Shown: one piece after another, positions 8,926-35,620 of the stretch
Layout of the letters: each line of letters starts with the position of its first letter
Position numbering within the stretch: position 1 is the stretch's first letter
From: Zingiber officinale
Taxonomy: Eukaryota > Streptophyta > Magnoliopsida > Zingiberales > Zingiberaceae
Length of the DNA stretch: 64,000 nt
Assembly: GCF_018446385.1 (NCBI RefSeq)
Contig: NC_056002.1
Span: 12,472,894-12,536,893, forward strand
Direction of reading: 5' to 3'
Program-made: the position numbers and the translations under genes
Notes under the pieces: generated by a model
What the model saw: the letters and a program-made list of their open reading frames with translations, nothing else
Told to the model about the DNA's origin: nothing
Databases searched by the model: none

Positions 8926-8934
8926 CTAAATCAA

Positions 8935-9100
8935 CGACAATTTACCAAAAGACGTACTAAGATTAATGTATTTATCAAAAAGTGTATCACGATTTTGTAT
9001 TTACCAAAAGACAGAGTTTACCAAAGTCAAGTCTCAGATTATCCCTCTGGCTAACCTGGCAATCGTCTTTTTCAAACACATTTTTCTAAGCATCCAAGCC
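8935..9100 (+). repeat. left terminal inverted repeat of the MULE
   Basis: It is strong over the first 80 bp and weak to about 165 bp. It is built from short sub-repeats of the form TTTACCAAAAGACG / TTTATCAAAAAGTG / TTTACCAAAAGACAG about 28 bp apart. The flanking 9-bp repeat is at 8926-8934. Confidence 0.82.
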
Positions 9101-9852
9101 GAAAGTAGAATAGAAAAATAATTTGTGGTTCGGATACATGTCTTCTCACCGTCTCTCTCCCTTCATCCCTCTGTGTGGTGTTATAAACTTGAAAGAAAAA
9201 AAAAATATATGAACCCTGCGCTTGCCATTACTGCTCGTGGTGGTTGGCGATTACAATAGACCAGTTAGAGGACAAATTAAGTTAAGAAGGTCAGCCGAGA
9301 AGGACAAACTTCTTGCAAGAGGGAAATTAGTAGAAGCACACATTTAAAGATTTAGACATGTATGTATTGATTTTTTTACTGTAAAATAGGGTAGTGAAGA
9401 TAAATAAAAAGTACATCATTTGTGTGTGAAGGGTGGCAGCAAAAAGTGGTTTTATGGTTAATTTTGGTTGTGTGGGGAATAATATTCAATAACACCTGAA
9501 TTATGATGTAATAGAAGACTTAATCAATTTAATTCATGTTAGTTTTTGACGTAGATAGTTAAGTTTGGCTAAAAATTGTTTATTTATGGTTTAAGGTTTA
9601 GTCAGTGGTGGGCCTAGTTTACAAGAAGTATCTGCTTCAAAAGTTGTCTGATATCATAGATATCATGCCCAACGTGGGCCTGATATGTATGATATCAGGC
9701 CCACCTTGGGTCTGATATCGATAATGTGTTATGTGGTTAAAACTTTGCTTTTACATCAGACCCTTCCTAGTTTGAGCAAAATTATAATTTAACTACGGAA
9801 AAAGATTATGGAGTTGCAAATTTACTAAAATAGTTTGTAATTTATTTATCAG
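9101..9852 (+). other. MULE 5' region before the transposase exon
   Basis: No reliable first exon is visible. The stretch ends in a splice-acceptor-like TTATTTATCAG, so it probably holds the transposase promoter, 5' UTR and an intron. Confidence 0.45.
9647..9720. repeat. subterminal GGCCCA palindromes of the MULE, left side
   Basis: The sequence includes ATGCCCAACGTGGGCCTGAT and then ATCAGGCCCACCTTGGGTCT, framed by GATATC. This is the same palindrome core as in the arrays at 22.4-25.1 and 28.4-31.6 kb and at 34665-34693. It lies about 0.7 kb inside the left end. Confidence 0.8.
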
Positions 9853-12019
9853 GGATGATCATATAACTGACGAAATTCTATCTGAGATATGGAATACTCT
9901 TAATGCAACTTCTAGCATTGGACATGCAGATAATGTAGGAGAAGTATCCAGAACAAATATTCCATCATCTTCACAATATAGTTGTGTGCATAACACAAAT
10001 AGAAATACAAGCAGTAATTTCACATTTGATCTAAATGAAGAAGCTAGTATTCAAGAAGATGAGGTTCTGAACCCGTGTGCAACACTTGTTGATTACTATG
10101 AGCCTAGTTGGAGTGAGGAGGAAGGGTATTATAACCGAAATGGAGAGGAAATGCAATGCAATACAGATGTACAAGAATTCTTTGCTGATGATATGCAGAT
10201 TGAACAATATGAAATATCTCAAGAGCAGTATAGTGACTTAGAGGAGGAGTTCCCAATAGCTGATGATCCATATATTCTAAATTCTCGATTGCTCCAAAGG
10301 CCAATTGAAGAGGCAACAGATCAGCATGAATTTTTTGTAGGACAGATATTTCAGTCTCGACAAGAGTTCAAGAATCAACTTGTGAAGCATGCCATGGTTA
10401 AACATATGAGATATAACCCAGTTGACACTAGGAAAAATAAAGTAAAAGCTGTCTGCTTCAATCAACCGTGTAAGTGGAGAGTAGTTGCCAGGGGGGATGT
10501 CGAGTTCATTGTTACGAAATATATAAAGGAACACCAATGTGGCACCATTAGGGAAAGTGCTGATCATCAAGCATGCTCTTCATCCTTTGTAGCTTCTTTT
10601 GTTGAAGAGCAATTTCTTGCTAATGAACAATACAAGTCAAGTATGATTATAGCAGATATAAAAGCCAGGTTCGGAGTGACCATATCCTACAGAAAAGCTT
10701 ACATAGCTCGAGAGAAAGCAATGAAGAAAGTTGTTGGAGATTATGATCAAGCATATAGAGATCTTCCACTATATCTGCGTGAGTTAAGAGTAAGGGATCC
10801 TGAAACCTATGTTGCACTACACAGGAATGGGGATAATCAGTTCCAACGATATTTTTGGGGTTTTGGAGCTTGTAGGAGAGTATTCAGATCTTATCTGCGT
10901 AAATTAATTGGAATTGATGTCACACACCTAAGAGGCAAATATCCGGGTGTGTTGTTGATGGCTACATCAATAGATGCTAATGACAATGTACTCCCAGTAG
11001 CCTTTGGTATCGCTGAAGTTGAATGTGGGTCTGCATGGGAGTGATTTCTGGATCATACGAAGAGATTCTTTAATGTTGATCCAGAGTCAATGAGTATAGT
11101 ATCAGATAGACATCGTGGCATTATAGCAGCAGTTAGGAAAGTCTACCCTACTGCCCATCATGCTTTTTGTTGCCACCACATGTCTTGCAATATGGTAACA
11201 GATACTGGCAGTAGGTCAGGTTTAGGGTTGTTTTGGGCAACTGCTCGAGCAAACACAACACTACAATATGATCTCATAATGCAGTCCATGCTTGAAAAAC
11301 ATCCAGATGCTCATAAGTGGCTTCAGAACATTGACCCTAAAAGATGGGCTAATGCACACTTTAGTGGGAGAAGATACACAATGCTAACCACCAATTGTGT
11401 AGAGAGTTTAAATGCTTTGTTCAAGAAGATGCGTGAACTTCCGATAAACAGGTTAATTGATAATACCAGAAGAAAGGTAGCTCAATGGTTCTGTAACCGT
11501 AAGGAGGAAGCGTCGAAATGGTATGTACCGTTAACACCTCATGCTACCAAAGAAATGCAATCAAGGAGGGAGAAAGCTAGACGATATAAAGTTCACCCCT
11601 ACTCTCAATCCGAAATGGAAGTAGAGACATGGGGTGCTTCATACATTGTTGATTTGGAGAGGAAATATTGTAACTGTGGGGAGTTTCAAATTTCAGGATT
11701 GCCTTGCTCACATGCAAATGCCGTCATAATTCACCGGAACATGGATACACTCCCATATTGTGAGCATTACTTTCATTCACATAATTGGAAAACGACATAC
11801 ATGGATCGTATTTACCCCTGTCGAAGCAAAGAATTTTGGCCTAAGGGTGTCAACAACATTATAGTGCTATGTCCCCGTAGCCTTGTGCAGCCTGGTAGGC
11901 GAAAGAAGGCAAAGATCGAGTCAAAACATAATGGTAAGGTAAAAATCAAATGCAGCAGGTGCAAATAACTGGGCCATAATCGGAGGACCTGTAGAATGCC
12001 GCTAGCCCCTGGATCTTGA
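9853..12019 (+). pseudogene. mudrA-like MULE transposase, two in-frame stops
   Basis: The exon opens after the acceptor at 9851-9852 and stays in one frame to 12019. Order: an acidic N-terminus; a MuDR-type DNA-binding region (about 10330-10560, with conserved Cys/Trp around FNQPCKWRV and KEHQCG); then the MULE DDE domain with GIDVTHLRGKY (first Asp about 10915), SDRH (second Asp about 11105) and NCVESLN (Glu). A SWIM zinc finger CNCGEFQISGLPCSHA follows at about 11670-11720. A CCHC knuckle (CSRCK-stop-LGHNRRTC) is at the end. Stops: TGA at 11042-11044 in place of TGG, and TAA at 11966-11968 inside the knuckle where CAA is likely. It would cut and join the element ends in the nucleus. Apart from the two stops it looks well preserved. 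Confidence 0.9.
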
Positions 12020-12207
12020 CTGAATTGTAAATTGGAGGAGTTGAGGCATATGTTTTGTATGAAGTACATAAATAGGTTTGTAAGACAAACAGTTGTTAAA
12101 AGTGATGTTTGTGTTATATACGTTTATGGAGTATTTAGTTTGTGTTACAGTTTTATGGTAGGTATGAGAAGTGTAAACCATCACCTGCAAGGCAGAAATA
12201 ATACTTC
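12020..12207. other. MULE spacer between transposase and gypsy insertion
   Basis: This is short AT-rich DNA, probably the transposase 3' UTR. The target duplication ACACC at 12208-12212 ends it. Confidence 0.4.
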
Positions 12208-12212
12208 ACACC

Positions 12213-12820
12213 TGATCCGGCGGTAAGAATGGGGGACCCACAGATGGGGTCCCGTCCGAGCGGAACCAGAGATTACCCAGCCAAAGGTTTGGGTTTCCGA
12301 CGCCAAAGCAGAAGAACCGGAGCCGAATGGCCGAGCGGAGGTGTCCGCTCGGCCGGAATCATGGCGAGGGAACAGTGGTTAACCGAGCGGCCTATTCAAT
12401 CGGCTCGGGATATGATATGTCAGCAAAGGCATGATGATTAGACTGTATGCAAGATGGCATTATTAAAGGCCCCACCATCACGTCACGGACAGGTTGATAC
12501 AGTAGCAGTATGGTCTTATGGATGCCCTTTTGACAGGCCCACACCTAGGCATGGTCGAAAGCAGGTGATCGCTTCGATTGGTGTGCCCAGGCGCCTTCGA
12601 GAGGTCTATATAAGGCCTCCATTTCTTCAACCGGAGGTACACAAGTCTACATTTTCTAAGCCACTTTCTTATTCCTTCGCCTAACTTGAGCGTCGGAGGG
12701 TCGTCGCCGGGACACCCCCCCCCCCGGCTCGATTTTGTTGCAGGTTCACCGGAGCACTCGAGGATACAGCAGGGAGCGCCACATCTCCAGCGTCCATTGA
12801 TCCTAGTTCGGACAGGATCA
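12213..12820 (+). repeat. gypsy 5' LTR, 608 bp
   Basis: TG...CA ends; TATA box TATATAA at 12607-12613, so transcription should start near 12640. A C-run of about 13 bases at 12715-12725 differs in length from the 3' LTR. Confidence 0.93.
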
Positions 12821-12821
12821 A

Positions 12822-12840
12822 TTTGGCGCCGTCTGTGGGA
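12822..12840 (+). promoter_or_regulatory. gypsy primer-binding site
   Basis: TTTGGCGCCGTCTGTGGGA follows the LTR directly. TGGCGCC is the 3'-end complement typical of plant gypsy priming tRNAs. I cannot name the tRNA with confidence. Confidence 0.7.
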
Positions 12841-12865
12841 ACGCACCTGCATCCGAGCAGAGGCA

Positions 12866-13870
12866 ATGGACGAGACTGGAAGACTACATACCGTGGCACT
12901 CTCACAAGAAGAGTTTGATGCTATAGTCGAGGCGAGGGCAGCCAAGACAGTGACGCAGCAAAAGGAGAAAGCACAGGCTGAGCGAGCGCAACAGCAAACA
13001 ACCTCGGCTTCAGCAGGCCGGGCGGAATATGTTTCAACAGGAGGGTTCCCTCAGGCACTCTTCCGTACTCCCCCAGAAATCGCGCCCGCTCACGAGGAGC
13101 AAGGATCTTCATCCGATGAGCCTCCCGTTCGGGATCATAGGAAGGGCAAAGCTCCCCGAGCGAACGCACCACCCGAGCAGGTTCACCGACAGTTCTCTGA
13201 AGCCATACATCGGGATCCGTTACCAAAAAACTATACACCACCGTCGATCGGAGCTTACAATGGGACGACCGACCCCGACGACCATTTGGGGAAGTTCGAC
13301 AGCATCGCCACCTTGCATCAGTACTCCGATGGCGTAAAGTGCCGGGTATTTCTCACCACTCTATCGGAATCTACACATAGGTGGTTTCGGAGGCTGCCGG
13401 ACGGCTCTATCACTAGTTTCCAGGAGTTCAGAAAGGCATTTCTTCATCACTTTGCGAGCAGCCGACGTTATCAAAGGACAAGCGTCAGCCTGTTCACCAT
13501 CAAACAAGAACCAAGAGAATCTCTCCGGGCGTATATACAGCGATTTAATCAGGTAGCGATGGACATCCCCACAGCCACCTCGGAGACAATGGTAAACGCC
13601 TTCACGCAAGGTCTCGCGGAAGGGGACTTCTTCCGTGCGCTCATTCGCAAACCGCCAAGAGACTACGACCACATGCTACACCGGGCGAATGAGTATATAA
13701 ATGTGGAAGAGGCGGAGGCTGCCCGGCGGAAGGGAACTCATGCCGAACGTCCGGCCCATGCCGAACGTCCGGCCCATGCCGAACGGAAGCAGCCCGCTGC
13801 CCATCAGCCACCAAGAGGACCAAGAGTTGAGGCATCCTGGGCACATCATGCGAAGTCCCCGGTGGTTTAA
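12866..13870 (+). CDS. gypsy gag (capsid)
   Basis: The start is the first ATG after the PBS (MDETGRLHTVALSQEEF); the frame is open further upstream but that lies in LTR and PBS. The retrotransposon gag domain is about residues 110-230 (HRWFRRLPDGSITSFQEF, then SLFTIKQEPRESLRAYIQRFNQV). Near the C-terminus a 6-residue repeat HAERPA occurs in tandem (13738-13790). The frame stops at TAA 13868-13870, and the same frame reopens after it, so a readthrough stop or a recent nonsense change are both possible. Gag packages the RNA in virus-like particles. Confidence 0.8.
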   Translation: MDETGRLHTVALSQEEFDAIVEARAAKTVTQQKEKAQAERAQQQTTSASAGRAEYVSTGGFPQALFRTPPEIAPAHEEQGSSSDEPPVRDHRKGKAPRANAPPEQVHRQFSEAIHRDPLPKNYTPPSIGAYNGTTDPDDHLGKFDSIATLHQYSDGVKCRVFLTTLSESTHRWFRRLPDGSITSFQEFRKAFLHHFASSRRYQRTSVSLFTIKQEPRESLRAYIQRFNQVAMDIPTATSETMVNAFTQGLAEGDFFRALIRKPPRDYDHMLHRANEYINVEEAEAARRKGTHAERPAHAERPAHAERKQPAAHQPPRGPRVEASWAHHAKSPVV

Positions 13871-13894
13871 GAGGTAGCGGCCGAGCGGTCAAAG

Positions 13895-14700
13895 ATGAAG
13901 AAAAAGAGGGTATGGACCCCAATGTTTTGCTCTTTCCATAATAATGACTCCCACAACACCCGCGACTGTCGGGGCCTGCCTTCAATCACCCATCCCGTAC
14001 GACGGAGTGGCCCTCGTCGATCGCCTTCACCCGGCCGCCGACAGCGGCATCAAGAGCGTTTCCCTCCAAGGCATGAAGATCGCTCTCGAAGGTCCAATGA
14101 GCGACCTAGGCAGTCCGCTCGGGAAGAGGAGAACAGAAACAACACCTCCCGGGGAGAAATCAATATTATTGCGGGTGGGCCGACCGGAGGAGATTCACAC
14201 AGGGCGAGAAAGGCAAGCGCCCGACAGCTCAGAATCCATGAGGTGGGTTGCAGCCAAGAAAAGGCGAGCGGACCCGAGATCAGTTTCGGGCCCAAGGATC
14301 TTGAGGGAGTTGAAGTGCCGCATGAGGATGCCCTTATCATCAAAGCGGTGATAGCCAACTACACCATCCACCGTATCTTCATTGACACTGGCAGCTCGGT
14401 CAACATCATCTTCAGAAAGGCTTTTGATCAACTACAAATCGATCAAGCCGAGCTGCTGCCCATGACAACCCCCCTCTACGGGTTTACGGGCAATGAGGTT
14501 CTTCCGGTCGGACAGGTAAGACTGGCTATCTCCTTAGGGGAAGAACCGCTCCGGAGAACGAGGACAACAAACTTTGTGGTGGTCGACTCCCCTTCATCCT
14601 ACAACGTGATACTGGGGCGACCGGCGTTAAGCGAATTCCGAGCTGCTGTGTCAGAAGATCAAATTCCCGGTCGAGGACAAAATCGGTGAAGTATGAGGAG
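13895..14700 (+). pseudogene. gypsy gag C-terminus and aspartic protease
   Basis: In frame with gag after its stop. A Cys/His stretch (MFCSFHNNDSHNTRDC) resembles a degenerate knuckle. The protease motif IDTGSSVNIIF is at about 14380-14415, with NVILGRPALSEF near 14600-14640. Soon after, at about 14650, the frame shifts: family-like sequence continues in another frame and quickly meets stops. The protease would process the polyprotein. Confidence 0.8.
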
Positions 14701-17700
14701 ATCGGTTAGCCGCTCGGAAATGCTATGTGGAAATGGTCCCAGCCGAATCCAGCGCAGCGTGAAAGGCTCCACGGATCGAGGTACACTCCATAACCGAGAA
14801 ACCTCCTGCTTTAATTTATGATGAAAAGGAGGAGGTTCAGATCCATCCGAGCCGATCGGAGGCTACAACCTTTATTGCCGCCGACCTGGAGGACGAACAG
14901 AAAGAAGAAGTGGTCAAATGCCTCCAGATGAATCATGACGTCTTCGCTTGGTCGACGCATGAGCTGCCCGGTGTCTCCCCTAGCATAGCCCAACATAAGC
15001 TTCACGTCCGGCCGGACGCTCGGCCAGTAAAACAAAGGAGAAGAGATTTCAGCGCCGAGCAGAATATTATCATTCGAGCGGAGGTAGAAAGACTCTTAGA
15101 GGCCGGCCACATACGGGAGGTTCAATTCCCAAGCTGGTTAGCAAATGTGGTGCTCGTCTCCAAGCCGGGCAACAAATGGAGGGTGTGCATCGACTTCAGA
15201 GATCTGAACAAAGCTTGCCCGAAGGATTTCTACCCTCTGCCCCGAATCGACCAGCTCGTAGATTCTACAGTCGGATGCGAGCTTATATGTATGCTGGACG
15301 CCTACCAAGGCTATCATCAAGTGCCGCTCGCCCCGGAGGATCAGGAAAAAGTTAGCTTCGTTACACCGGACGGGACGTATTGCTATACGGTGATGCCGTT
15401 CGGACTGAAGAATGCTGGAGCAACATATCAAAGATTGATGAATAGGGTCTTCCGCGAGCAAATCGGACACAACCTGGAGGTCTATGTAGATGACATCCTC
15501 ATCAAATCCTTCCGAGCGGCCACTTTATGCAAAGATATGGAAGAAACCTTCCGTACACTCAGAAAATATGGGGTCAAGCTAAATCCTCATAAGTGTTTGT
15601 TCGGCGCCAAAGGAGGACGTTTCTTGGGCTATATTGTGACCGAACGGGGTATTGAAGCTAATCCTAGCAAGGTGAAGGCTCTTCAGGACATGCCACCGCC
15701 CAGAAACATGAGGGAAGTACAGAGGCTGACCGGTCGGATTACAGCGCTATCACGCTTCATCTCCAAGACTGCCGACTGGAGCCTTCCGTTCTTCAAAGTC
15801 TTCCGCAAAGCTACAAAGTTCCAATGGAATGAAGACTGCGATCGGGCCTTTGAAGAACTGAAGACGTACTTAAACTCCCTACCTGTGCTGGCCAAGCCAG
15901 CTGTCGGCGAATCGTTGCACATTTATTTATCCTCAACCGAGCAGGCAGTGGGATCAGCGTTAGTCCGGTCGGGAGGTGAGGAGCAACCTGTATATTTCCT
16001 TAGTCATATCTTGAAAGATGTTGAAACCCGCTACACCGGACTCGAGAAGTTGGCCTTTGCTCTGATCCTGGCCGCTCGGAGACTTCGTCCTTATTTCCTG
16101 GCGCACACGATTATCGTCCAGACCAATAGCCCGTTGGGACGAGTGCTTTTTCCAGACGGCTCATCAAATGGACAACCGAGCTAAGCGAATTTGATATCCA
16201 ATATCAACCTCGCTCGGCTATCAAGGCATAAGCCTTAGCCGATTTTGTGACGGAGGTGCAGGACCCGGAACCCGAAGCTGTGTGGAAAGTGTTCGTGGAT
16301 GGATCGTCCACTAGACACGGGAGCGGAATTGGCATAGTTTTGCTGTCCCCACAAGGAGAGCGGATGCAGCTCTCCGTCCGGCTAGATTACCGAGCGACCA
16401 ACAACGAAGCAGAATATTATTGCTGGATTGCAGGCCGCTCGGCACGTTGGAGCCGTCCGGGTCATCCTCTATTCAGATTCCCAGTTGGCTGCTCAGCAAA
16501 TCTCGGGGATTTTCGAGATAAATAGTACAAGGCTCAAGCTCTACGTGGAGGCTATTGAAAAACTTAAGCTCAACTTTAGGGAGGTGATTATTCAAAAGAT
16601 CCCCCGGGCGGAGAATCAAGTGGCGGATGAATTGGCCAAGCTGGCAAGCGCGTTATCCCCGGTCGGCTCTCAGAAGCCGATCGAGCAAGTATCTTTAGTA
16701 GCACATGTCGATCGGATGGAGGGCATCACATACCCGAGCGACTGGAGGACAACTATTGTGGAGTTTTTGCGCTCGGGAGCTACCCCCTCCGACCGGGAAG
16801 GAGCTCATTTACTGAAGAGAAGGGCTAGTCGGTTCACCCTCGTAGGAGATCAACTCTACAAGAAGGCCTTCTCCTGTCCGCTCCTAAAATGCGTCAGCTG
16901 GGAAGATGCCGAGTACATCCTTCGAGAAGTGCACCAAGGTTCGTGCGGTGGACATCCAGGCGGACGGTCGTTAACCAGGAAGATTTTGCTAGCCGGGTAT
17001 TTTTGGCCAACACTTCAAAAGGATGCTGCCCGGACCGTTGCAAATTGTCTATCCTGTCAGAAGTATCACAGCATGTCCCACCGACCGGCAGATGAGATGA
17101 AAGCATCAACTGTGGCCTGCCCGTTCGACCAATGGGGGATGGACATCGTGGGACCCTTTCGGGCAGCGGAAGTTCTTATTGGTGGCGGTCGACTACTTCT
17201 CAAAATGGGTAGAAGCTGAGCCACTTGCAAAAATATCCGAGCAGATGGTTAAAAAGTTCATATGGCAAAATATCATCTGCCGCTTTGGCATCCCAAGACG
17301 ACTCGTGTCCGACAACGGACGTCAATTCACTCGGAAGCTGCTCGGGAAGTGGTGCGAAAGTTATGGCATCGAGCAGCACTTCACATCGGTGGCATACCCC
17401 CAGAATAACGGTCAAGCCGAGGTAACCAACCGAGAGATTCTCAGAATTTTACGGGCTCGGCTCGACCATGAAGGAGGCAGCTGGGTAGACGAGCTGCCGG
17501 GCATCCTATGGGCTCTCCGCACGACACCAAAGGAGGGAACGAGCGTCACTCCATTTCACTTGGTATATGGAGGCGAAGCAGTCATCCCGATTGAAGTTAG
17601 GGTGGAGTCCGTTCGGGTACAAAATTATGATGAAGATAACGCCGAACGGAGGAGCATGGAGCTAGACTTGGTCGAAGAGGAAAGAGCTAAAGCGTCCGTC

Positions 17701-17958
17701 CGGCTGATGACGTACCGGCAACGTATGAAACAGAACTACAACCGGCGCGTGATCCCCAGAGCCTTTCAAGTAGGCCACCTAGTTTGGAAGAAAGTCAAGC
17801 CGGTCGGAGATGTCGGCAAGTTGGAAGCTCCCTAGGCAGGACCCTTTGAAGTGGTCGAGAAGCTCCGTTCGGGCGCTTATTACCTCAAGGATGCGGAAGG
17901 TCGGATGCTGGATCGGCCATGGAGTGCAAATCACCTTCAGCCATATAGAGCTGGGTGA
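14700..17958 (+). pseudogene. gypsy pol: RT, RNase H, second RNase H, integrase, broken
   Basis: RT spans about 14910-15700, with VCIDFRDLNKACPKD, the catalytic LDAYQGYHQV and the YVDD box (about 15484-15495). RNase H follows to about 16150. A second, archaeal-type RNase H starts with FVDGSSTRHGSGIG at about 16290 and has SDSQLAAQQISG near 16475. Integrase has an HHCC zinc-binding region (HQGSCGGH ... CLSCQKYH, about 16930-17070), then Asp in VAVDYFSKWVE, Asp in VSDNGRQF and Glu in NNGQAEVTNRE. Frameshifts lie near 16150, 16425 and 17165. Nonsense codons include TAA at about 16229 and TAG at 17833-17835. The natural end is TGA 17956-17958. Confidence 0.88.
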
Positions 17959-18235
17959 GAGGTGCGCTTTTGCTCTATTTTGTGTAAATTCAAAATAGCT
18001 GTACTCCTTTTATCGCAGGAGACAAATTATTCCCAAGGCATTCTGTGTTCATAGCCGAACGGTTGGTTATCCGAAGGCCCCATGCCGTTCGGCCGGAGGT
18101 AAATTATCGGAGCCAAGCGCTCGACGACGAAGGCCCCGAGCTGCTCAGCCGGAGGTATATTGTACGAGCCAAAGGCTCAATTCCGAAGACCCTGTGCCGT
18201 TTGGCCAGGTAAACGTTGTCCAAATTAGGCTTAAA

Positions 18236-18595
18236 AGCCCGACGAGCTCCGTCGTTAAAGATCGAGAGCCGCGCCGACCGGCTATAAATATCCGCGCCGA
18301 CAAGCTCCGTCGTTAAAGATCGAGAGTCGCGCCGACCGGCTATAAATATCCGCGCCGACGAGCTCGTCGTTAAAGATCGAGAGCCGCGCCGACCGGCTAT
18401 AAATATCCGCGCCAACGAGCTCCGTCGTTAAAGATCGAGAGCCGCGCCGACCGGCTATAAATATCCGCGCCGACAAGATCCGTCGTTAAAAATCGAGAGA
18501 CGAGCCGGCGTCTATAAAAACCGAGCGGAAAACCGACGAGCACCATCGTTAAAAATCGAGAGTCGGTCTGGCGACTATAAATACCCCGGGCGGAC
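18236..18595 (+). repeat. 58-bp tandem repeat, six units, each with a TATA-like box
   Basis: Four near-identical units and two diverged ones, each of the form CGACGAGCTCCGTCGTTAAA, GATCGAGAG, CGCGCCGACCGG, CTATAAATA, TCCGCGC. The TATAAATA is kept on the plus strand in the good units, with CTATAAAAA or CTATAAATA in the diverged ones. It lies between pol and the antisense ORF. Tandem arrays at this place are common in Tat elements. Whether the TATA boxes are used is unknown. Confidence 0.9.
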
Positions 18596-18967
18596 GAACG
18601 AATATCAAAGAATAAGAAACCGCAGAAACCACAAGTATTAAAACATTTAGGCCCGCTCGGGCGTTGGTCCTTCGATACTTGGCGTTTGTTGACTTCACAC
18701 AGGCTAGATACGTGCAGAGCGAGTAGGTCCTCCCGCTCGGACTTTGTTTAATGGGTTAAGCTGATCGGCCGTGTGACGGAGAACACTTAGAGCATGACTG
18801 ACTCTAAGCATAAGCGTTAAGCAAACAGAAGAATATTATGGATAATGATCAGGAAGACGCAAGTAAAGACATAATTGCATTAAAGGGAAAGCATGCCGGA
18901 CGACAAGTACAAAAAGTTGCGCTGGGCGTAAGAAACGCAAAAACAAGATAGAGACGAGGAACACTCT

Positions 18968-20975: not shown

Positions 20976-21591
20976 GACTAAAGAAGGGAAGGAAGCCTAG
21001 CAATACTCGGAAACAAGGGGACGAGAGAAGAGAAGAAGCTTACTGAGGGAAGATCAAAGGAAAGAAGCCCAGGAACTCGAAAACCACCAGAAAGCAAGCA
21101 CGGGGAATCGCCGGAGTAAGCTAGCAGCAGGCAGCTTCGACAGAGGACGCGCGATGAAACAGAGAGTGCGGCGTGAAGGCCAGAACGAGGGCTTTATACA
21201 AACGAGACCGCTCAGCCTCGTCCGTCGGATGAAGGGCACAAGAGACGAGGTCATCATCTAGCCGTTCATTTCAAAACAAAGGGCGTCCCATCGTACGGAG
21301 CGTCACCGCCACTAGAGACAAGCCACGTGGCGCTCTGTCACCAAGCGTAATTAATGCGCCCATACCGCGCATGCTTCGGCTTAATGAAAAAGACTTGCGT
21401 GATTTTCAAGAGGATTTAGACAAGCAAACATCCACGTTGGGCGCCAAGGCATACAAAGCGAAGAGCCGAGTGGATAAATTTGGCATGAGGGCCGAACGGC
21501 TCAAGGGATATCAGCAGCAGCGATAAGGCGACGACCGCCCGCTCGGACACACAGTCCAGTCAGTCGAACTCACTGCCTCCTTCGACTAGAC

Positions 21592-21607
21592 TTGAAGAGG
21601 AGGCAAG
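21592..21607 (+). promoter_or_regulatory. gypsy polypurine tract
   Basis: GAAGAGGAGGCAAG sits directly before the 3' LTR, the normal place for plus-strand priming. Confidence 0.75.
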
Positions 21608-25102: not shown

Positions 25103-25463
25103 ATATAAAAAGTATTAATTCAAAATAATAATAAATAATCTTACACATAAATCGAGGCAATTAAATAAAATAAAATAATGAGATATCAGACCCAAGTTTC
25201 AATCTGCAAAAGCGCACACTCTCCTGCTTCGGTCTTCATCTTCTTCTCGAAGCCATTCTACGCAGCTCCGGTCCAGGCGTCACTCTTCCTTCACCGGCAT
25301 TCAATAATCATTTCCGTACGTAGGTCGGTTGCTCATTTAGTTAAGTTTTCTATAACCGGTTAACCTAGGGTTTGTGTGGGTGTGTTAGAATAAGAGCGTA
25401 GTCGTTATTACAGGAACTAAGAGTTGTTTTTCTGTGTGTGGTTATACAGTACGTAGGTTCGCA
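25103..25463 (+). other. leader region before the inner Ulp1-like gene
   Basis: It is AT-rich at first, then mixed with CT-rich patches; probable promoter and 5' UTR. No domain is seen. Confidence 0.4.
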
Positions 25464-28304
25464 ATGGCAACAAAAGAAGTCTCGACAAGTGTGTGTGCTG
25501 ATCGACCAAATTATCAAAGTTACGTCAACAGAGGAAGAACTAAAAGAATGAACTGGAAAAATACCATTTGCCACTTCAGAAAGTTTATCTCTTATGTTAA
25601 CCCGACTGAAGAACAAGAATAGATGATTCGAGGCACACCTTTTTCCTGGATCCTCGACCTCCCTGATAGTTTCTTTTGTAAGAGCTCAAGTATAAAATAT
25701 GTTTGATAACTGGGATCATGAGGAAAAAAACTTTATCTTCCATGGGAAGAAGCTCAATTTTACAAAGGTAGATATGGGACTGATTCTTGGCCTACCCGAC
25801 AATGGAGATATAGTTCGTCTCGATTTAAATGAGGCTTCAAGCGCACTGTACATGGAGTTTTTCCGAGAATCGGATTGTTCTGCCAAACATTTAGAGAAAC
25901 TGATTAGGAAGTCTAGATCAAACGACAAGCTGTACTGTCAGCTTTTTATCCTGTATTTTTTTACAACTGTTCTATTTTGTGGGAGTAGCAGTGTTCTCAG
26001 AATACCTGTGCTCTCCCTAATTGACTATGTAGATGATTTTGACAACTTAGCTAGGTTTAACTGGTGCAATGCAGTATACAGTTTCATGGCTCAACAATTA
26101 GACTCCATTGGATTGGAGCTTACATTAAGACCAAAACCACAGGTTGCTGATGCAACGCCCAAGGCCCCCTTGCTAAAGGGATTTCCAAATATTTTAGCTG
26201 TAAGTCCGATTACATATATAGCAAGATATGTGTAAAGATTATGAATTATTTTTATAATCATATTGTAGGTATGGGTGTGTGAGCACATCAGCATTATTGA
26301 TCCAGACCATTCAGAAAAATTGCCAAGAATACTACGATGGAGGTGGCCTAACTATCATGTTGACACAGTAAAAAAAATGATAGACCGTGTAACTGCAGAT
26401 AAAATTTTAGTAGATTTAATTCCGACAGAATCAGAGTTGAATTTACTACCAAACCAGCCTCAGCCATCTGAGTATCTTGAGTTGGTTGGGCAAGGATCTT
26501 TACATCAAGCCGAAGAAGGCCAACTCCAATGTGACGATACCGTAGATTGTAGTTTGTGCAAGGAAAATGATAACAAAATTGAGAGTTTAAAGCAAGAATT
26601 ACATAAAGCTTCTCAAAATTTGGAGGAAGCTAATAAAAACCTGGCAACGATGATAGAAGAAAAGGATAGTCTAGTAGCAGCAAAGGATATTGTGATTGCT
26701 GATATGGAAGCTATGCTTAAAGAAAAGGATCAACAAATAAGTGAACTGCGTAAAGAACGGGATACGAGTGACAACAAGGCTGACACTATAAATTCTGACG
26801 TGGATAACAGAATTTTAACTGTAAAAGACAAAATCATAGCCGATGCCGAAAATAAGATTAAAGATCTCCAACAAGTCATACAAAGCATATCAGGGGAGCC
26901 AAGAGCATCAGAAGGCATAGACCCAGCATCAGAAGGCATAGCCCCTAATCTGCCTATAATTCCAACTAATTTTCGGGTAGGCCCCAAAAGAAAGAGAACT
27001 CAGAGAAGGTTGATATCCCAATGCACCAAAAAAAAAAGGCAAACAGTTTGTTCTTAGTGTCGAACCAGATGCTCCTGCACCATCAAAGACAGAAAATACA
27101 AGTTCATCACAGATAGAAACACAATGTCATGAAATTAACAAGGTCAAAACCAAAATATTGAAGGTACGGTCGAGAGTAGGTAAGTTGTTATTTTATAATC
27201 CTTAATGACATAGTATTATTTTAATTATCTCAGCAAGCGAAAACATTTTTTAAAAAGAGCAAAGATGATGTGATAGCCGATGCATTGTTGAAGCTCAGTC
27301 AGTTAAGGTAACGTAGTTGTCAACCTAAATTCTTAACCCACATGTCAACAAAGGATTATTATTGGAGTTTAATGATATTTTTTTATTTTTAATTTATTAA
27401 ATACCATTGACTGTATACTTGTGTGTAGGGTGACGGTGCAACCAATATGGGCAAATGATAATTTCTCCTTAGATATGCAATATTTTATGACAATATTTGA
27501 TTGGACACAATATACCAATGGGGATTGCATAAATGTTTATTGGAATATTCTTGCTAATGAAGCCAAACACTCTAACTCACCATACCACCCATCCATATTT
27601 TGTGGGGTTGGATTCCCAGTATGTCCCTTATCTCATTGTAAATTGTTTACATTATATATTGGATGCAGTCACCATAATAGCTCTATTATTTGCATAGGAC
27701 TTGTTCGGAATGATGCACGTGGATGCATTGAAACAAACTGCAAAAACTGATGACGACAAGGACATTAGATATATTTTTTGTCATCTACATAACCAAGATG
27801 ATCATTGGCATCTAATAGTCATGGACCTGGAGGAACGTCAAATAATTCATTATAACTCTCTTGGCACCACAGAAAATTACACTTCTGTTTTTAATCAAAC
27901 TGTAAGTAACAAATTTCTTATATCCAATAATCATTGTTTATGACTTAATTACTATGGTTTGGTATTTGTAGCTGTTGTTTTTTAAGGAGCTGAACTGGTC
28001 ATACTATCACATATGACATAAAGGTTTAGAACCATTCTCCGGGAGAGAGTATAAAACGATGCAAGTTATTGGCCCCACACAAAGCAAATCGTAAGTATTA
28101 GTGTATGTTCCATAATAATTCTATTTGCCTTTTTTATGATGGATTGTGCATTTGTTTTGTAGGTTGAATTGTGCTTTTTTTATAATGCGCTATGCAGAGA
28201 GTTTGATGTTCCGGAGATCTACAGACTTTGTACAAGCTGATATGAGAGCTTATAGATTTAGACTTGGACACAAAATCATGTCTGACAAAAACTTTAAACT
28301 ATAG
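25464..28304 (+). pseudogene. inner Ulp1/C48-like protease gene of the MULE, multi-exon, degraded
   Basis: Order: a short N-terminus; a DUF1985-like region (TPFSWILDLP, NWDHEEKNFIFHGKKL, MGLILGLPDNGD, RFNWCNAVYSFM, LLKGFPNILAV); an intron at 26199-26268; a further domain (CEHISIIDPDH...VDLIP); a coiled coil (about 26560-26890); and a C-terminal Ulp1-like fold with DDHWHLIVMDL (His, Asp) and NCAFFIMRY (Cys). The usual DCGFF is NCAFF here. Ulp1 enzymes cut SUMO from proteins; in MULEs their role is unknown. Damage: TAG at 25620-25622, a frameshift before 25699, a run of ten A near 27030 that changes frame, and a TGA near 28015. Later exons were placed by eye. It is homologous to but clearly diverged from 31998-35168. 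Confidence 0.78.
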
Positions 28305-28430
28305 AAATAGTGAACAATTGTAATAATTTATTCTAGTAATGATTTACTGTTTGTGTAACTAAAATTTATGGTGAATAAAATTATTGTAAATTAAATTTAT
28401 GGTTACTTAATACCTTCTTTAAATCCCTTT
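28305..28430. other. 3' flank of the inner Ulp1-like gene
   Basis: AT-rich, with AATAAAATT-like signals near 28374; a probable polyadenylation region. Confidence 0.35.
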
Positions 28431-31400
28431 TCTAATAAGGTATTGCTCCATGGCAGTTGGCACGGAACAGTGCACCGATTTTCTTTTCCACCCTATGGGA
28501 AGTGAATTTAAAAAATGATCTTATTTTAATTTTTTTTTTCATAAGGAGCATGGTAGCACATTTGGAGTTTATAGAAAGGGGGAGATAGTAATTATTTGCC
28601 ACGAGATTTGGAGTCCTTGCAACTCCAGATTACGACTAGAACTGAAATGGGTCCAATCGGAGGTGTCTATGTCCATCAGTGGGTTTTGACCAAAATCCAC
28701 TGATGCCCCACCCCTACTTGGATATACATGAAATCAAGTCCCCAGTGAAGTTCTTGGTGGAGAGATGGTATATATGGTGTCAAACATAATTTATACACTA
28801 TGGCTTAGGAAGTATGGCTCCGTGCCAGTTGGCACGGAACAGTGCCAAGGCCACTTTGGGCCTGATATGCTTGGATATCAGGCCCACGTTGGGCCTGATA
28901 TGCACTCATATCAGGCCCACGTTGGGCCTGATATCCAAGCATATCAGGCCCAACGGATGCTGATTGTATTTTAAATTTTTCCCAGCACCTATAAATATTT
29001 AAATAATTATTTGCCACCAGATTCTGAGTCCTTGCAACTCCAGAATACCACTAGAGCTGAAATGGGTCTGATCAGAGGTGTCTAGGTCCATCAGTGGGTT
29101 TTGACCAAAACTCACTGATGACCCTCCCCTACTTGGATTTTCATGAAATCAAGTCCCCTGTGAAGGTCTTGGTGGGGAGATGGTATTTATGGTGTCAAAA
29201 ATAATTTATACACCATGGATTAGGAAGTATGTCTCCGTGCCAGTTGCCATTTATTTTTTCATAAGGAGCATGCTAGCACATTTTGAGTTTATAGAAAGGC
29301 GAGATAGTATACATTTATAAGAAAGGATACCATACCAAGGCCACTTTGGGCTTGATATGCTTGGATATCAGGCCCACGTTGGGCCTGATATGCACTCATA
29401 TCAGACCCACGTTGGGCCTGATATCCAAGCATATCAGGCCCAACGGAGGCTGATTGTATTTTAAATATTTCCCAGCACCTATAAATATTTAAATAATTAT
29501 TTGCCACCAGATTCTGAGTCCTTGCAACTCCAGAATACCACTAGAGCTGAAATGGGCCCAATCAGAGGTGTCTAGGTCCATCAGTGGGTGACCCTCCCCT
29601 ACTTGGATTTTCATGAAATCAAATCCCCTGTGAAGGTCTTGGTGGGGAGATGGTATTTATGGTGTCAAACATAATTTATACACTATGGATTAGGAAGTAT
29701 GGCTCCGTGCCAGTTGTCATTTATTTTTTCATAAGGAGCATGGTAGCACATTTTGAGTTTATAGAAAAAGGGAGATAGTATAAATTTATAAGAAAGGATA
29801 CGATACCAAGGCCACTTTGGGCCTGATATGCTTGGATATCAGACCCACGTTGGGCCTGATATCCAAGCATATCAGGCCCAACGGAGGCTGATTGTATTTT
29901 AAATTTTTCCCAGCACCTATAAATATTTAAATAATTATTTGCCACCAGATTATGAGTTCTTGCAACTCCAGAATACCACTAGAGCTGAAATGAGTCCAAT
30001 CAGAGGTGTCTAGATCCATCAGTGAGTTTTGACCAAAACCCACTGATGGCCCTCCCCTACTTGGATTTTCATGAAATCAAGTCCCCTGTGAAGGTCTTGG
30101 TGGGGAGATGGTATTTATGGTGTCAAACATAATTTATACACCATGGATTATGAAGTATGGCTCCGTGCTAGTAGGCACGGAACAATGCACAACTTTTCTT
30201 TTCTACCCTATGGAAGGTGACTATTAAAATTGATGTTATTTTATTATTTTGATCAGGCCCCTGTAAGAATGCTTGGAGTTTATATTAGGGGGAGATAGAA
30301 TACTGCTTTATTAAATGATATTCATATCAGGCCCACGTTGGGCCTGATATGTACTCATATCAGGCCCACGTTGGGCCTGATATCCAAGCATATTAGGCCC
30401 AACGGAGGCTGATTGTATTTTAAATTTTTTCCAGCACCTATAAATATTTAAATAATTATTTGCCACCAGATTCTGAGTCCTTGCAACTTCAGAATACCAC
30501 TAGAGCTGAAATGGGTCTGATCAGAGGTGTGTAGGTCCATCAGTGGGTTTTGACCAAAACCCACTGATGGGCCTCCCCTACTTGGATTTTCATGAAATCA
30601 AGTCCCTAGTGAAGGTCTTGCTGGGGAGATGGTATTTATGGTGTCAAACATAATTTATACACCATGGATTAAGAAGTATGACTCCGTGCCAGTTGGCAAG
30701 GAACAGTGCCAAGGCCACTTTGGGCCTGATATGCTTCGATATCAGGCCCACGTTGGGCCTGATATGCTTCGATATCAGGCCCACGTTGGGCCTGATATCC
30801 AAGCATATCAGGCCCAACGGAGGCTGATTGTATTTTAATTTTCTCCCAGCACCTTTAGAAATTTAAATAATGATTTGCCACCAGATATGGAGTCCTTGAA
30901 ACTCCAGAATACCACTAGAACTAAAATCGGTCCAATCCGAGGTGTCTAGGTCCATTAGTGGGTTTTGACCAAAACTCACTGATGCCCCTCCCCTACTTGG
31001 ATATAAATGAAATCAATTCCCCTGTGAAGGTCTTGGTGGGAATATGGTATATATGGTGTAAAACATAATTTATACACCATGGATTAGAAGGTATGGCTCC
31101 GTGCTAGTTGGCACGGAACACTGCACAGCTTTTCTTTTCTATCGTATGGAAAGTGACTTTTAAAATTGATGTTATTTTATTATTTTGATCAGGCCCCTGT
31201 TAGCATGCTTGGAGTTTATATTAGGGGGAGAAAGAATAATGCTTTATTAATTGATACTCATATCAGGCCCACGTTAGGCCTGATATGCCCTCATATCAGG
31301 CCCACGTTGGGCCTGATATCCAAGCATATCAGGCCCAACGAAGGCTGATTTTATATTATTTTTTCCCAGCACATATATATATATATATATAATGATTTGC

Positions 31401-31641
31401 CACCATCTTCTGAGTCCTTGCAACTCCAGAATACCACTAGAGCTGAAATGAGTCCAATCAGAGGTGTCAAGGTCCATCAGTGGGTTTTGACCAAAACCCA
31501 CTAATGGCCCTCCCCCACTTTGTTCTACCTGAAATCATGTTCCTTGTGAAGTTCTAACTGGGAAGATGGTATATCTGGTGTCAAAACGTATTTATACCCC
31601 ATTTCTAATAAGGTATTGCTCCGTGGCAGTTGGCACGGAAC
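28431..31641 (-). repeat. hairpin array B: seven units, inverted relative to array A
   Basis: The marker GGTGTCAAAC (the reverse of array A) recurs at about 28776, 29191, 29661, 30119, 30639, 31054 and 31578. It carries the same three stem-loops. Both its first and last units carry CTAATAAGGTATTGCTCC and TGGCAGTTGGCACGGAAC, so the array is bounded by two copies of one edge sequence. One unit holds a (TA)n run at 31372-31391. With array A it forms an inverted repeat of about 2.7-3.2 kb around the inner Ulp1-like gene. Confidence 0.93.
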
Positions 31642-31997: not shown

Positions 31998-34900
31998 TTA
32001 ATCCAATGTTTGAAAATACTTATCCCTCAAAATTGCTACCATTATATCAATTCTAATCTTTTTCATGTCTCCTTGTTTGAAGTCCATCTTCATATCATAT
32101 AGGAGACATCGAATGTATTGCATCACAAAGAAGCCACAGTCAACGCTGTAAAGAACAACAACATTTTAATTGTCAATATTTTTTTATCAATTATTTATAT
32201 TCATAGGTTGTGCTCGATTTACCTTACTTGTTGTTGTGGACATTCAATTGTGTGAGATACCAATCTATCAAACGGATAATGCCTTTCCAAGTTTGGATGA
32301 ATAGCAGCAACGTCCTCACGACTATATAATTTAAAATCTGATACCTGAAGATTGAAGAGGAAATTTCCATTTTCCATCAAATAGCATTTATATTAAAATA
32401 CAAACCTACACATTATTATTAGATGCTCACCGCTGCTTCAAATTCATATTTGTATTTACTTCCACTTGTAAGAGAATTGTACTGATTGAACGTCATTGAT
32501 TTGATGTCCACCACCAGCAAGTGAAAGTGTGCATTATCACTGCACAAAGGTTTAAATATATACCTTACCTCTTCATCTCGTCTATCCGTCTTTATCATGT
32601 GTTGGAAGGCAAACTTACTTAACGATTTCATTAATGACTACAAATATGCAAAGTCATACATACATAACCAACTAATAAAAAGAATTCTATTTTTTATTAT
32701 AATCAAATCAATTCCTTACTGTGAAGAATATTGAACAATATATTGACTTGTTGTATGTGCTTCCAGACGGGAATGCCCCCCTAAATAAAATTTTACAATA
32801 CGTGTCGATTACATCCCCTCTTGTCAACATTTCTCCATTCACACCAGATAAAAGGAAATACAAATTTAAACAAAAGGGTGGTTCCTCCCAAACTATATCA
32901 TTTGTAAACCTACAAAGTAAACAAATCACAGATTATTTTTACAAATTTCTTTTTGATAACCTTAGCTCAGATAAGCATATATTATACTATACTATTCAAC
33001 TATTTAATTTACATACTTTATTTCCTCCAAGGCTTTTAACAAGTACGCCACCTCTTCGTCTTGTTTTTTTTTTCTTGGAAGACTTAAATTGCTTCTTCAC
33101 ATACTATGCATACAAACAAATAAGGCAATTAGATAATCCATTATATCTAACAAATTGCAAAGAAATTTGCATATATCGTCTTACAGCAATTGCTTGTTTC
33201 CTCATTTTGTCATATTTGGCAAACATTTCTACATCCTTGTCTGCCTTTTCATCAGATTTGTCTTCCATCAATTGTACAATATTAATTTCTTCTTCCATTT
33301 CATCCAAACCTATTTTTCCTTTCCCCTTGCCCACAACAACATATTCTTTGACAAATTTTTTTCCTTCTCCTATACTTGTAACTTTTTCCGCAGGCTCACT
33401 TATATGTATATTTCTACGCTACCTCTTAGGCAAAGTTTTGAGTCACAATGGACGACTATCAATTGGAGTATCCCTATAATCATAGCGACTTCTGTCACGT
33501 CCTCTCCTACTTCTTGTTGTAACACCTACAGGTTCAATTTGAGGATCGTCTACAGGCTCGCTATATTGAGATTCCATGCCTTTTTTTTCAACTATTTTAA
33601 GTAACTCTTTCACCCTCTCCTTCAATTGCATGTTCTCCATTGTTTGCTCTTTATTTATGTTTGCTTGAATAATGCAATTACAACAATCCTTATTAATCTG
33701 CTTTCCTCCTACACTCACTTCAATTTATGATGCCTCCATTGCATGTGGACTATCATCAACGCCAGCAAGGTTCTCAACCAATGATCTTTCATCTTGGTTA
33801 GGGATTAGGTCAATCACAACCTGTAAGAATATTAAACCACATGTTAAAACCATACTTTTTAACCAAACTATAGTCAAAGTATTCTAAATTTACCTCTTCA
33901 GATGAAACTTGGTTAATCATTTCTCTCACCTTACTAATATGTGAAGGAATATTCCTCCACTTATTTATTCTTGCTCCTTTTATTTTGTATGATTTTTGGA
34001 TTGGAACATGCTCCAAAAACCATGCCTGATTCACCATGACAAGGGTTAACTATTTTATAATTGTTCGCAAAATATTAAAAATTTTCACACAAATTAAACA
34101 CTTACTGCCAAAAGACCAGCAAATCCCTTTAGGTAAGGGAGGTTGGTGTTAGCATGTTTTGTCTCAGTTGATGAAAATATGTCCCCAATCTTAGGTAATT
34201 GTGGAGCCATAAATTCATGGATTGCTTCAACCCAGTTGAATCTATCAAGATTCTCAAAATCATCTACTATATCTATAAGACTTAATGAGACCTTATATGT
34301 ACTAGAAGAAAATAAGACACAAACAAATATATACAAAATATAGAATTTGCAAAATAATAAAACATCATCTTCGCCTTCAACGTGATTGCCATAAAATTTA
34401 AGCAACTCTTCAATTCTTGATCTAGTAGCTTCTTTTTTATTTGAGAAGTAAGTTAGAAAAAGGTCACTGGATGCTTTAGCTGAATCAATCGGAATTGAAG
34501 CTCCTCGGTCTGCAATACCGAGCAGCAATGAAACGTCTCCTCTTGTGAAGCAAACTGGAACACCTGACCAAGTTAAATTATTATTAAACTTCTACCAACA
34601 CATACAAAAGTATTAGAAACACCGTGGACATGATACAATGTCATATCAAGCACTGATACTCCATCGTATCAGGCCCACGTTGGGCCTGATACGGCATCGT
34701 ATCAGCGCCACCTTTAGCAAAAGCTTAAATTTTACCATACAACTACTTTGTAATTAAAATACAAAATTATAAATTGTACCTGAGAATCTAAAGGTTTGAC
34801 TAATTAAATCCCAATTTTCAAATATATTTACCAAAATCCCACGGATGTGCTGCATATCTTCTATGTCCAAAAAAATACGAAAGGGTGACTGTTTGATCAG

Positions 34901-35168
34901 CACTATGTGTCGGTCATGCAAAATAACACAGCCTCCATGCGTTCCTTTCTTCGTGGATGGTTGAAAAAAATTTTTAAAGTGATCGAGGACACTGTTCCAA
35001 TGCAGTTTCTGTCCAACATCAACTGAACCCTATACTTTATAAAAATAAAAAAAAATTAAATCATACTAGTTCAGCTTCTCAATATCACAGAGTTTGTAAA
35101 ATGATAACCTTTACAGCTAATTGATGTGGAGAGGATGATGATTCACCCGATCGATGTCTTTGCGCCAT
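31998..35168 (-). pseudogene. right-end Ulp1/C48-like protease gene of the MULE, multi-exon, with stops
   Basis: It starts MAQRHRSGESSSS at 35168, about 400 bp inside the right terminus, and reads inward. Exons by splice sites: 35168-35109, 35029-34780 (KQSPFRIFLDIEDM, IFENWDLISQTFRFS), 34563-34106 (DVSLLLGIADRG, RFNWVEAIHEFM, YLKGFAGLLA), 34025-33894 (AWFLEHVPIQK), about 33822-33440 and several more. The Ulp1 part has NAHFHLLVVDI (His, Asp; about 32520) and DCGFFVMQYIRC (Cys; about 32130), and ends at TAA 31998-32000. In-frame stops at about 33726 and near 33443 break it unless those exons are read differently. The catalytic triad residues are kept. The position matches that of the second gene in two-gene MULEs. 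Confidence 0.8.
34665..34693. repeat. subterminal GGCCCA palindrome of the MULE, right side
   Basis: Arms CGTATCAGGCCCA and TGGGCCTGATACG are perfect over 13 bp with a 3-base centre. It lies in an intron of the right-end Ulp1-like gene, about 0.9 kb from the terminus. Confidence 0.85.
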
Positions 35169-35407
35169 TATGATACTAGCTGATTAATGTAATGTAAACC
35201 CTAGAATCGTTCACTGATGGCTCACGAACACTCCTGGTTTTTAATTAAACTGAAATGCTAGCTAGATGCCACTTGAGAAAAACTCGAACTGATGGCTCAC
35301 GAACACTAAACTAGGGTTTCACAAGACCGAGCTGCACTCGCATGTCACGAAGGAGGGAGGTACCCTAATGATCGTTTTTTTTTAATATCTAAGTTTTTTA
35401 AAAATGT

Positions 35408-35570
35408 GGTTCGGATGCCTGGGAAATGATGACTGATCAGAGGAGTTGGTTGGCGGTAGGGTTATATTCGGTAATATACATCACTTACCTGCGCCTTTTG
35501 ATAAATACAAAACCGTGATACGTTTTTTGATAAATACATTAACTTTAGTACGTCTTTTCATAAATTACCA
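35408..35570 (-). repeat. right terminal inverted repeat of the MULE
   Basis: Reverse complement of the left end; strong over about 80 bp, weak to about 160 bp. The 9-bp duplication CTAAATCAA follows at 35571-35579. Confidence 0.82.
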
Positions 35571-35620
35571 CTAAATCAATTGTTAAAATATAACAATTGA
35601 TTTGAATATTATTCATCAGC

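What the first reader, a model, noticed from the sequence alone, without database searches (positions are those of the whole stretch)
8926..35579. A 26.6-kb Mutator-like element with an exact 9-bp target duplication
The 9-mer CTAAATCAA stands at both ends, exactly where the inverted termini stop aligning, and the left end is followed by a mudrA-like transposase. Seen: the repeats and domains. Known: Mutator elements make 9-bp duplications. Inferred: everything between is one element, later split by a gypsy insertion. Even without the gypsy it is about 16.6 kb, well above usual MULE size.
Basis: partly seen in the sequence, partly recalled or inferred. Interest (0 to 1): 0.85.

Follow-up and report, generated by a model that had tools for sequence, protein, structure and literature searches.

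The report
Ginger jumping gene with invertible cassette
This stretch of ginger DNA is one very large Mutator-type jumping gene, later split by a second jumping gene, from an abundant family that carries repeat arrays and a gene segment found in both orientations.

Summary
Confirmed, with more than was reported. The window lies in the haplotype-resolved ginger (Zingiber officinale) genome. Positions 8935-35570 are one Mutator-like element (MULE), inserted once: CTAAATCAA flanks both ends, and the homologous chromosome has a clean empty site with one CTAAATCAA. A gypsy retrotransposon (12213-22212, duplication ACACC) split it later, so the MULE itself is about 16.6 kb. Forty scored places (window included) carry each end or gene; 10 of 12 copies examined have exact 9-bp duplications; copies with the full plan measure 15.0-17.3 kb. 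The size is not a record: grapevine MULE families reach 17.7 kb. The repeat also sits upstream of mudrA and inside ULP-B's intron, where its number changes in 33-bp steps. This is the layout of VANC anti-silencing targets in Arabidopsis VANDAL elements; DUF1985 scores are weak, and an anti-silencing role is inference. The ULP-A cassette between the arrays occurs in both orientations (15 same, 9 inverted, 16 unresolved of 40), probably by repeated recombination between the arrays.

The parts
8926..8934 (+). left target site duplication CTAAATCAA
   Evidence: single copy at the empty site
8935..9010 (+). left terminal inverted repeat (two and a half copies of a 30-bp subrepeat)
9648..9719 (.). 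33-bp palindrome cluster upstream of mudrA
   Evidence: interval length differs between copies
9788..11968 (+). mudrA transposase gene, in-frame stop at 11042-11044 in this copy
   Evidence: that codon is a stop in 2, sense in 9, gap in 1 of 12 copies
12208..12212 (+). gypsy target site duplication ACACC, left
12213..22212 (+). gypsy LTR retrotransposon nested in the MULE (5' LTR from 12213, 3' LTR 21608-22212)
   Evidence: 17 of 605 LTR differences
22213..22217 (+). gypsy target site duplication ACACC, right
22384..25102 (+). left array of ~460-490-bp units carrying the 33-bp palindrome
25103..28400 (+). ULP-A cassette, inverted in some other copies
25696..28304 (+). ULP-A gene: DUF1985-like exon 25696-26235, coiled-coil part 26269-27057, Ulp1/C48 pieces 27698-27943 and 28140-28304
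28589..31641 (-). right array, inverted relative to the left one
31998..35026 (-). ULP-B gene: open first exon piece 34780-35026, DUF1985/PMD-like exon to 34094, Ulp1/C48 pieces 32419-32637 and 31998-32165
34564..34779 (-). ULP-B intron (GT-AG) that holds the 33-bp palindrome at 34653-34714
35495..35570 (-). right terminal inverted repeat
35571..35579 (+). right target site duplication CTAAATCAA

Best explanation
A single MuDR-type DNA transposon of about 16.6 kb inserted here on one haplotype of ginger, making a 9-bp duplication, and was split by a gypsy retrotransposon roughly a million years ago. Its full plan is TIR - mudrA - array - ULP-A - inverted array - reversed ULP-B - TIR. Shown: one insertion event, family membership, nested gypsy, both orientations and losses of the ULP-A cassette. 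Inferred: it moves by cut-and-paste through a transposase that acts on the TIRs; the two ULP-like proteins most likely act on the palindromic repeats that lie beside the three genes and keep the family from being silenced, as VANC proteins do in Arabidopsis VANDAL elements; recombination between the inverted arrays flips or deletes the ULP-A cassette.
For: Empty site with one CTAAATCAA on the homologous chromosome. Exact 9-bp duplications at zero offset in 10 of 12 copies (one of them, C22, is a run of T). Paired ends at 19 of 40 left-end places. One motif ties the parts together: 65 of the 67 half-sites of the window lie inside the element, near the left end, in both arrays and near the right end. 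Constraint: pN/pS 0.33 (mudrA first ORF, 10 of 12 copies) and 0.44 (ULP-A DUF1985-like exon, 27 of 27) against 0.74 and 0.97 for the same stretches in a wrong frame; second mudrA ORF 0.45, 11 of 12, no control. One Ulp1/C48 piece of each ULP gene is above Pfam's cut-off. The ULP-B intron length is 215 + a multiple of 33 bases in 9 of 11 copies. Orientation of ULP-A: 15 same, 9 inverted, 16 unresolved of 40; one inverted copy read in full; AU test rejects one clade of the inverted copies, p 1.4e-60, 5 changes on the tree. Copy C4 lacks ULP-A but keeps 115 bp of its cassette edge.
Against: No duplication found in 2 of 12 copies, C12 and C2b. DUF1985 is below Pfam's curated cut-off in 9 of 9 ULP-A sequences scanned and in ULP-B, where PMD scores as well: the VANC link rests on weak scores plus layout. 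The coiled-coil part of ULP-A shows no constraint (0.64 against 0.68 in the wrong frame) and ULP-B little (0.60, 11 of 12 copies, no control). Starred branches of the tree alone force only one change of orientation. The remnant seen in C4 was not seen in C13 or C22, and C12 was not examined for it. No expression, methylation or binding data.
Confidence: 0.88

Rival explanations
1. The palindromic repeats are binding sites of the transposase or promoter elements, and the ULP-like genes are passengers that do not act on them.
For: The motif lies just upstream of mudrA and in the first intron of ULP-B; MULE transposases bind near their ends (recalled). pN/pS of ULP-B is only 0.60.
Against: Most half-sites lie in the middle of the element, not near the ends. 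ULP-A's DUF1985-like exon is under constraint (0.44 against 0.97), and both genes are kept in most copies examined (ULP-B 11 of 12, ULP-A 8 of 12).
Confidence: 0.3
2. The inverted arrays are a hairpin source of small RNAs, so they trigger silencing rather than prevent it; flips are a by-product.
For: Arms of about 2.7-3 kb in inverted order; tandem repeats can be siRNA sources and RdDM targets (PMC10398659, passages).
Against: The family is abundant and the half-sites are far more uniform than the spacers between them (98% against 52% in 10 array units), which a mere hairpin does not need.
Confidence: 0.12
3. The two orientations of ULP-A are assembly errors at long inverted repeats.
For: The assembly is from Nanopore reads (PMC8342452, passages), and inverted arrays of several kb around a 3-kb segment are a known hazard (recalled).
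Against: The arms are diverged (about 81-95% between them), 9 of 24 resolvable copies are inverted, and orientation follows the ULP-A tree in part (5 changes against 7.8 in shuffles), which random errors would not.
Confidence: 0.12
4. The region is a chance stack of separate elements: a left MULE end, a nested array element carrying ULP-A, and an unrelated right end.
For: The array pair looks like long terminal repeats of an inner element.
Against: Empty site and duplications; the full plan recurs in other copies; no 9-bp direct repeat flanks the array pair; the same motif occurs in all parts.
Confidence: 0.03

Closest known systems
VANDAL elements with VANC (Arabidopsis VANDAL21, VANDAL6)
   Same: Mutator-type transposase gene plus a partner gene with DUF1985; short motifs in labile tandem repeats upstream of the transposase gene and in introns of the partner genes (PMC5735166, passages; PMC10398659, passages).
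   Different: Here DUF1985 is below Pfam's cut-off, TIRs are clear, the motif is a 30-bp palindrome in a 33-bp period, and large inverted arrays flank one gene. Anti-silencing is untested. The host is a monocot.
Kaonashi (KI) MULEs and KIU proteins
   Same: Ulp1 domain inside a MULE, reversed relative to mudrA (ULP-B); a review describes KIU as VANC genes with a Ulp1 domain (PMC13317346, passages; PMC2528002, passages; PMC6117577, passages).
   Different: KI-MULEs are non-TIR. Here there are TIRs and two ULP genes, one of them in a segment found in both orientations.
Mutavine-1 and Mutavine-18 (grapevine MULEs)
   Same: 17.7 kb with 70-bp TIRs, and 16.2 kb with a ULP region (PMC2528002, section 8 and Table 4 read).
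   Different: No motif arrays or orientation change in the parts read.
Hvu_Abermu (barley MULE)
   Same: TIR-MULE with 9-bp duplications, three ORFs, one reversed, very high copy number (PMC9168764, abstract and sections 13, 15, 23 read).
   Different: 8.2 kb; function of the extra ORFs unclear; no motif arrays or inversion in the sections read.

Membership tests
Mutator superfamily (MULE) | 9-bp target site duplication | tested here: met
   Window and empty site; exact in 10 of 12 copies
Mutator superfamily (MULE) | MuDR-type transposase | tested here: met
   DBD_Tnp_Mut, Transposase_mut, MULE and SWIM at or above curated cut-offs in the two ORF pieces
Mutator superfamily (MULE) | terminal inverted repeats | tested here: met
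   64 of 72 positions; termini of the other copies
Mutator superfamily (MULE) | dispersed copies with the same two ends | tested here: met
   40 of 40 scored places matched in each of five searches, of 621-1159 first-look candidates; 19 of 40 left ends paired
VANDAL/VANC anti-silencing MULE | partner protein with DUF1985 | tested here: inconclusive
   ULP-A 21-29 bits against a cut-off of 35.1, 9 of 9 below it though E is 1.3e-6 to 2.9e-4; ULP-B 18 bits, with PMD at 17.7
VANDAL/VANC anti-silencing MULE | short motif in tandem repeats of non-coding parts, labile between copies | tested here: met
VANDAL/VANC anti-silencing MULE | partner protein removes DNA methylation from the family | not testable with these tools
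   needs methylation or transgene data
VANDAL/VANC anti-silencing MULE | transposase belongs to the VANDAL clade | not tested
   no plant transposase collection at hand
Kaonashi (KI) MULE | Ulp1 (Peptidase_C48) domain | tested here: met
   one piece of ULP-A 31.7 bits, one of ULP-B 23.7, cut-off 20.7; another ULP-B piece 20.2, and the second ULP-A piece no C48 match
Kaonashi (KI) MULE | no terminal inverted repeats | tested here: not met
   TIRs present
Pack-MULE | lacks the transposase gene | tested here: not met
   mudrA sequence in 12 of 12 copies examined, truncated in C14, interrupted in C3 and C4

The most novel reading that the evidence does not exclude
In a monocot, a MULE has placed its VANC/KIU-like gene in a cassette that flips between two inverted arrays of that protein's own target palindrome. 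Recombination across the target arrays would switch the direction of the gene relative to mudrA and change read-through, dsRNA production or target spacing: a switch built into a transposon's anti-silencing system.
Probability: 0.2. Interest if true: 0.8.

Novelty: new variant of a known kind. Interest (0 to 1): 0.55.

Why it matters
The outer finding is a rare case where a giant transposon's boundaries are settled by an empty allele in the same genome. The inner finding is new to me: a very abundant monocot MULE with two ULP-like genes, a palindromic motif in every non-coding interval tested, and one gene that occurs in both directions between inverted arrays of that motif. If the ULP proteins bind the motif, the VANC type of anti-silencing, worked out in Arabidopsis, also exists in a TIR-bearing MULE of a monocot, and the family offers hundreds of natural copies with different motif numbers and gene orientations to test how transposons escape silencing.

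Tried and rejected
Nested inner element: rejected as an active unit, since no direct repeat of 7-10 bases (9- and 10-mers with one mismatch allowed) flanks the array pair. Allelic copies with opposite orientation, which would prove flipping in place: one candidate pair (C5 at 145.7 Mb, C6 at 131.3 Mb) was tested and is not allelic, as the flanks match only inside the element; I did not test others. Structure of the ULP-A DUF1985-like exon: one prediction without an alignment, mean pLDDT 39.8, useless, so no fold search was made. Catalytic residues: ULP-A has Asn where SENP1 has Asp in the YDS motif (alignment, E 0.18; Asn in 27 of 27 copies), so protease activity is uncertain; the ULP-B first block and ULP-A second block were translated in a wrong frame and were not used. 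Literature: nine searches. I saw no paper on an invertible MULE cassette or on a ginger MULE in those listings, which cover only the open-licence library. Sasaki et al. 2022 (EMBO J, VANDAL co-evolution) is not held, so what it says about monocots was not seen beyond a review's summary.
Full report
What was claimed. A 26.6-kb Mutator-like element at 8926-35579 with an exact 9-bp duplication, later split by a gypsy insertion.

Check of the ends. CTAAATCAA stands at 8926-8934 and 35571-35579 and is the only 9-mer shared by the two 45-bp end regions; random 9-mer pairs of the window agree with frequency 2.75e-5. The inverted repeats align over 72 positions at 88.9%, with a score of 104 against at most 82 in 2909 random pairs. 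The outermost 4 bases match at 1 of 4 in this copy only; other copies carry CGGCAATTTACC or near forms at both ends.

Source. The genome has 3.09 Gb in 211 contigs. The contig lengths of C2 (194,392,478) and C22 (88,687,397) equal the largest and smallest pseudochromosomes, 194.39 and 88.69 Mb, of the haplotype-resolved ginger assembly (PMC8342452, passages). I take the species as Zingiber officinale. C17 and C18 behave as a homologous pair at this place.

One insertion. The left flank finds C18:12367095-12367781 and the right flank C18:12367773-12368578. In L010 the two flank alignments (90.5% and 86.9%) overlap by exactly 9 bases that read one CTAAATCAA. This is an unoccupied allele, so 8935-35570 entered as one unit.

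Nested gypsy. LTRs start at 12213 and end at 22212, flanked by ACACC; 17 of 605 LTR positions differ, which gives about 1.1 million years at 1.3e-8 per site per year (the rate is the one used in PMC8342452). In 9 of 12 copies the sequence runs straight through the gypsy site; the other three are the window itself, C14, which lacks the region, and C15, which failed the pattern though its BLAST pieces abut. Without the gypsy and its 5-bp duplication the MULE is about 16.6 kb.

Family. Searches with the left end, right end, ULP-B, mudrA and ULP-A each scored 40 candidates and all 40 matched, the window included; the first-look candidates were 898, 621, 1159, 1107 and 978, which are not verified counts. 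Of 40 left-end places 19 pair with a listed right end, at 7.2-46.3 kb. I read 11 further copies, chosen from these lists and not at random. Exact 9-bp duplications at zero offset: 10 of 12, window included; not found in C12 and C2b; that of C22 is nine T. Copies with all parts, C15, C3, C2a, C2b and C16inv, measure 15.0-17.3 kb.

Plan. TIR, mudrA, array, ULP-A, inverted array, reversed ULP-B, TIR. ULP-B sequence is in 11 of 12 copies (not C10), ULP-A in 8 of 12 (not C12, C4, C13, C22). mudrA sequence is in 12 of 12, truncated in C14 and interrupted in C3 and C4. The window's mudrA has an in-frame stop at 11042-11044; that codon is a stop in 2, sense in 9 and a gap in 1 of 12 copies.

The ULP genes. 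ULP-A: DUF1985 E 5.5e-6 (26.8 bits, cut-off 35.1), 21-29 bits in 9 of 9 sequences scanned; Ulp1/C48 31.7 bits (cut-off 20.7). ULP-B: the DUF1985-like exon is 38% identical to that of ULP-A, DUF1985 18 bits and PMD 17.7 bits on two joined exon pieces, C48 pieces 20.2 and 23.7 bits. So both are Ulp1-like with a weak DUF1985/PMD-like part. pN/pS: mudrA first ORF 0.33 (10 of 12 copies), second 0.45 (11 of 12), ULP-A DUF1985-like exon 0.44 (27 of 27), ULP-A coiled coil 0.64, ULP-B 0.60 (11 of 12); wrong-frame controls 0.74 (mudrA first ORF), 0.97 (ULP-A exon), 0.68 (coiled coil); no control for the second mudrA ORF or ULP-B. Constraint is thus seen for mudrA and the ULP-A exon, not for the coiled coil, and is doubtful for ULP-B.

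The motif. TGGGCCTGATAT-N6-ATATCAGGCCCA recurs every 33 bases in blocks. Of 67 half-sites in the window (at most 2 mismatches) 65 lie inside the element: upstream of mudrA, in both arrays, beside ULP-A, and at 34653-34714. The last lies inside a GT-AG intron of ULP-B (34779-34564); that intron measures 215 plus a multiple of 33 bases in 9 of 11 copies, the others 216 and 240. The interval upstream of mudrA takes lengths of 107, 139, 202, 203, 218 and 234 in 11 of 12 copies measured. In 10 consecutive array units the half-sites are 98% alike, the 6-base spacers 52% and the linkers 84%. The genome holds 15,619 such palindromes at up to 2 mismatches, and none of the same pattern read backwards. 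At two other loci on C1 picked from that list, arrays mostly 68-80% like these (short pieces up to 88%) keep the palindrome; they were picked for the motif, so this is weak evidence.

The invertible cassette. Of 40 ULP-A places, 24 have another part of the element near enough to fix the orientation: 15 as in the window (itself included), 9 inverted, 16 unresolved. One inverted copy, C16, read in full, has 25103-28400 reversed at 97.3% between arrays that keep their own orientation. On a tree of 27 ULP-A sequences (those 24 and three more of known orientation) the label changes 5 times (bootstrap 4-6; shuffled mean 7.8), none of 200 bootstrap trees has one change, and the AU test rejects a single inverted clade (p 1.4e-60); starred branches alone would allow one change. 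Units are shared across arms: best matches of left units lie in left arms 27 times and right arms 7 times, those of right units 18 and 18. Copy C4 has lost ULP-A but keeps 115 bp of its edge. Repeated recombination between the inverted arrays explains all this; exchange between copies could add to it.

How it probably works. Transposase and TIRs give 9-bp-staggered cut-and-paste (known for the superfamily). In Arabidopsis, VANC proteins bind short motifs that form labile tandem repeats upstream of VANA and in introns of VANB and VANC, and strip methylation from the family (PMC5735166, passages; PMC10398659, passages). The same layout here makes an anti-silencing role of ULP-A and/or ULP-B the best guess, not a shown fact. 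A review places capture of the Ulp1 domain near the monocot-eudicot split and stresses its conservation in eudicots (PMC13317346, passages); ULP-bearing MULEs of rice are also in print (cited in PMC2528002, passages).

Novelty. Large ULP-bearing MULEs are known. The combination of two ULP genes, inverted target-like arrays and a cassette in both orientations was in none of the listings of my nine literature searches. I file it as a new variant of a known kind.

Noticed in passing
window 619-2939 (-): Remnant of a copia-type LTR retrotransposon: gag (Retrotran_gag_2, 7.1e-16) and integrase/SH3 pieces.
   Followed up: partly
window 35573-35692: Next to the right target duplication stand a short palindrome (35573-35603) and a pure (ATA)24 microsatellite (35621-35692).
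   Followed up: no
window 46054-56974: Gene-bearing flank: GIR1-like zinc ribbon (46054-46413), Zn_ribbon_15 protein (53522-53953) and a MYB exon (56582-56974), so the element sits near ordinary genes.
   Followed up: no
L062 (C1:27787000-27793000) and L063 (C1:22691000-22695000): Diverged arrays (mostly 68-80% alike) that keep the same palindrome with other spacers, perhaps a sister MULE family.
   Followed up: partly
ULP-A 27698-27943: Asn stands where SENP1 has Asp in the YDS motif, in 27 of 27 ULP-A copies; the Ulp1 domain may not be an ordinary protease.
   Followed up: partly
L010 (C18:12365595-12369281) against the window flanks: The two ginger haplotypes are only 87-91% alike in these flanks, more different than the MULE copies are from each other in their genes (95-99%).
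   Followed up: no
window 8940-9012: The TIR itself is made of about 2.5 copies of a 30-bp subrepeat.
   Followed up: no
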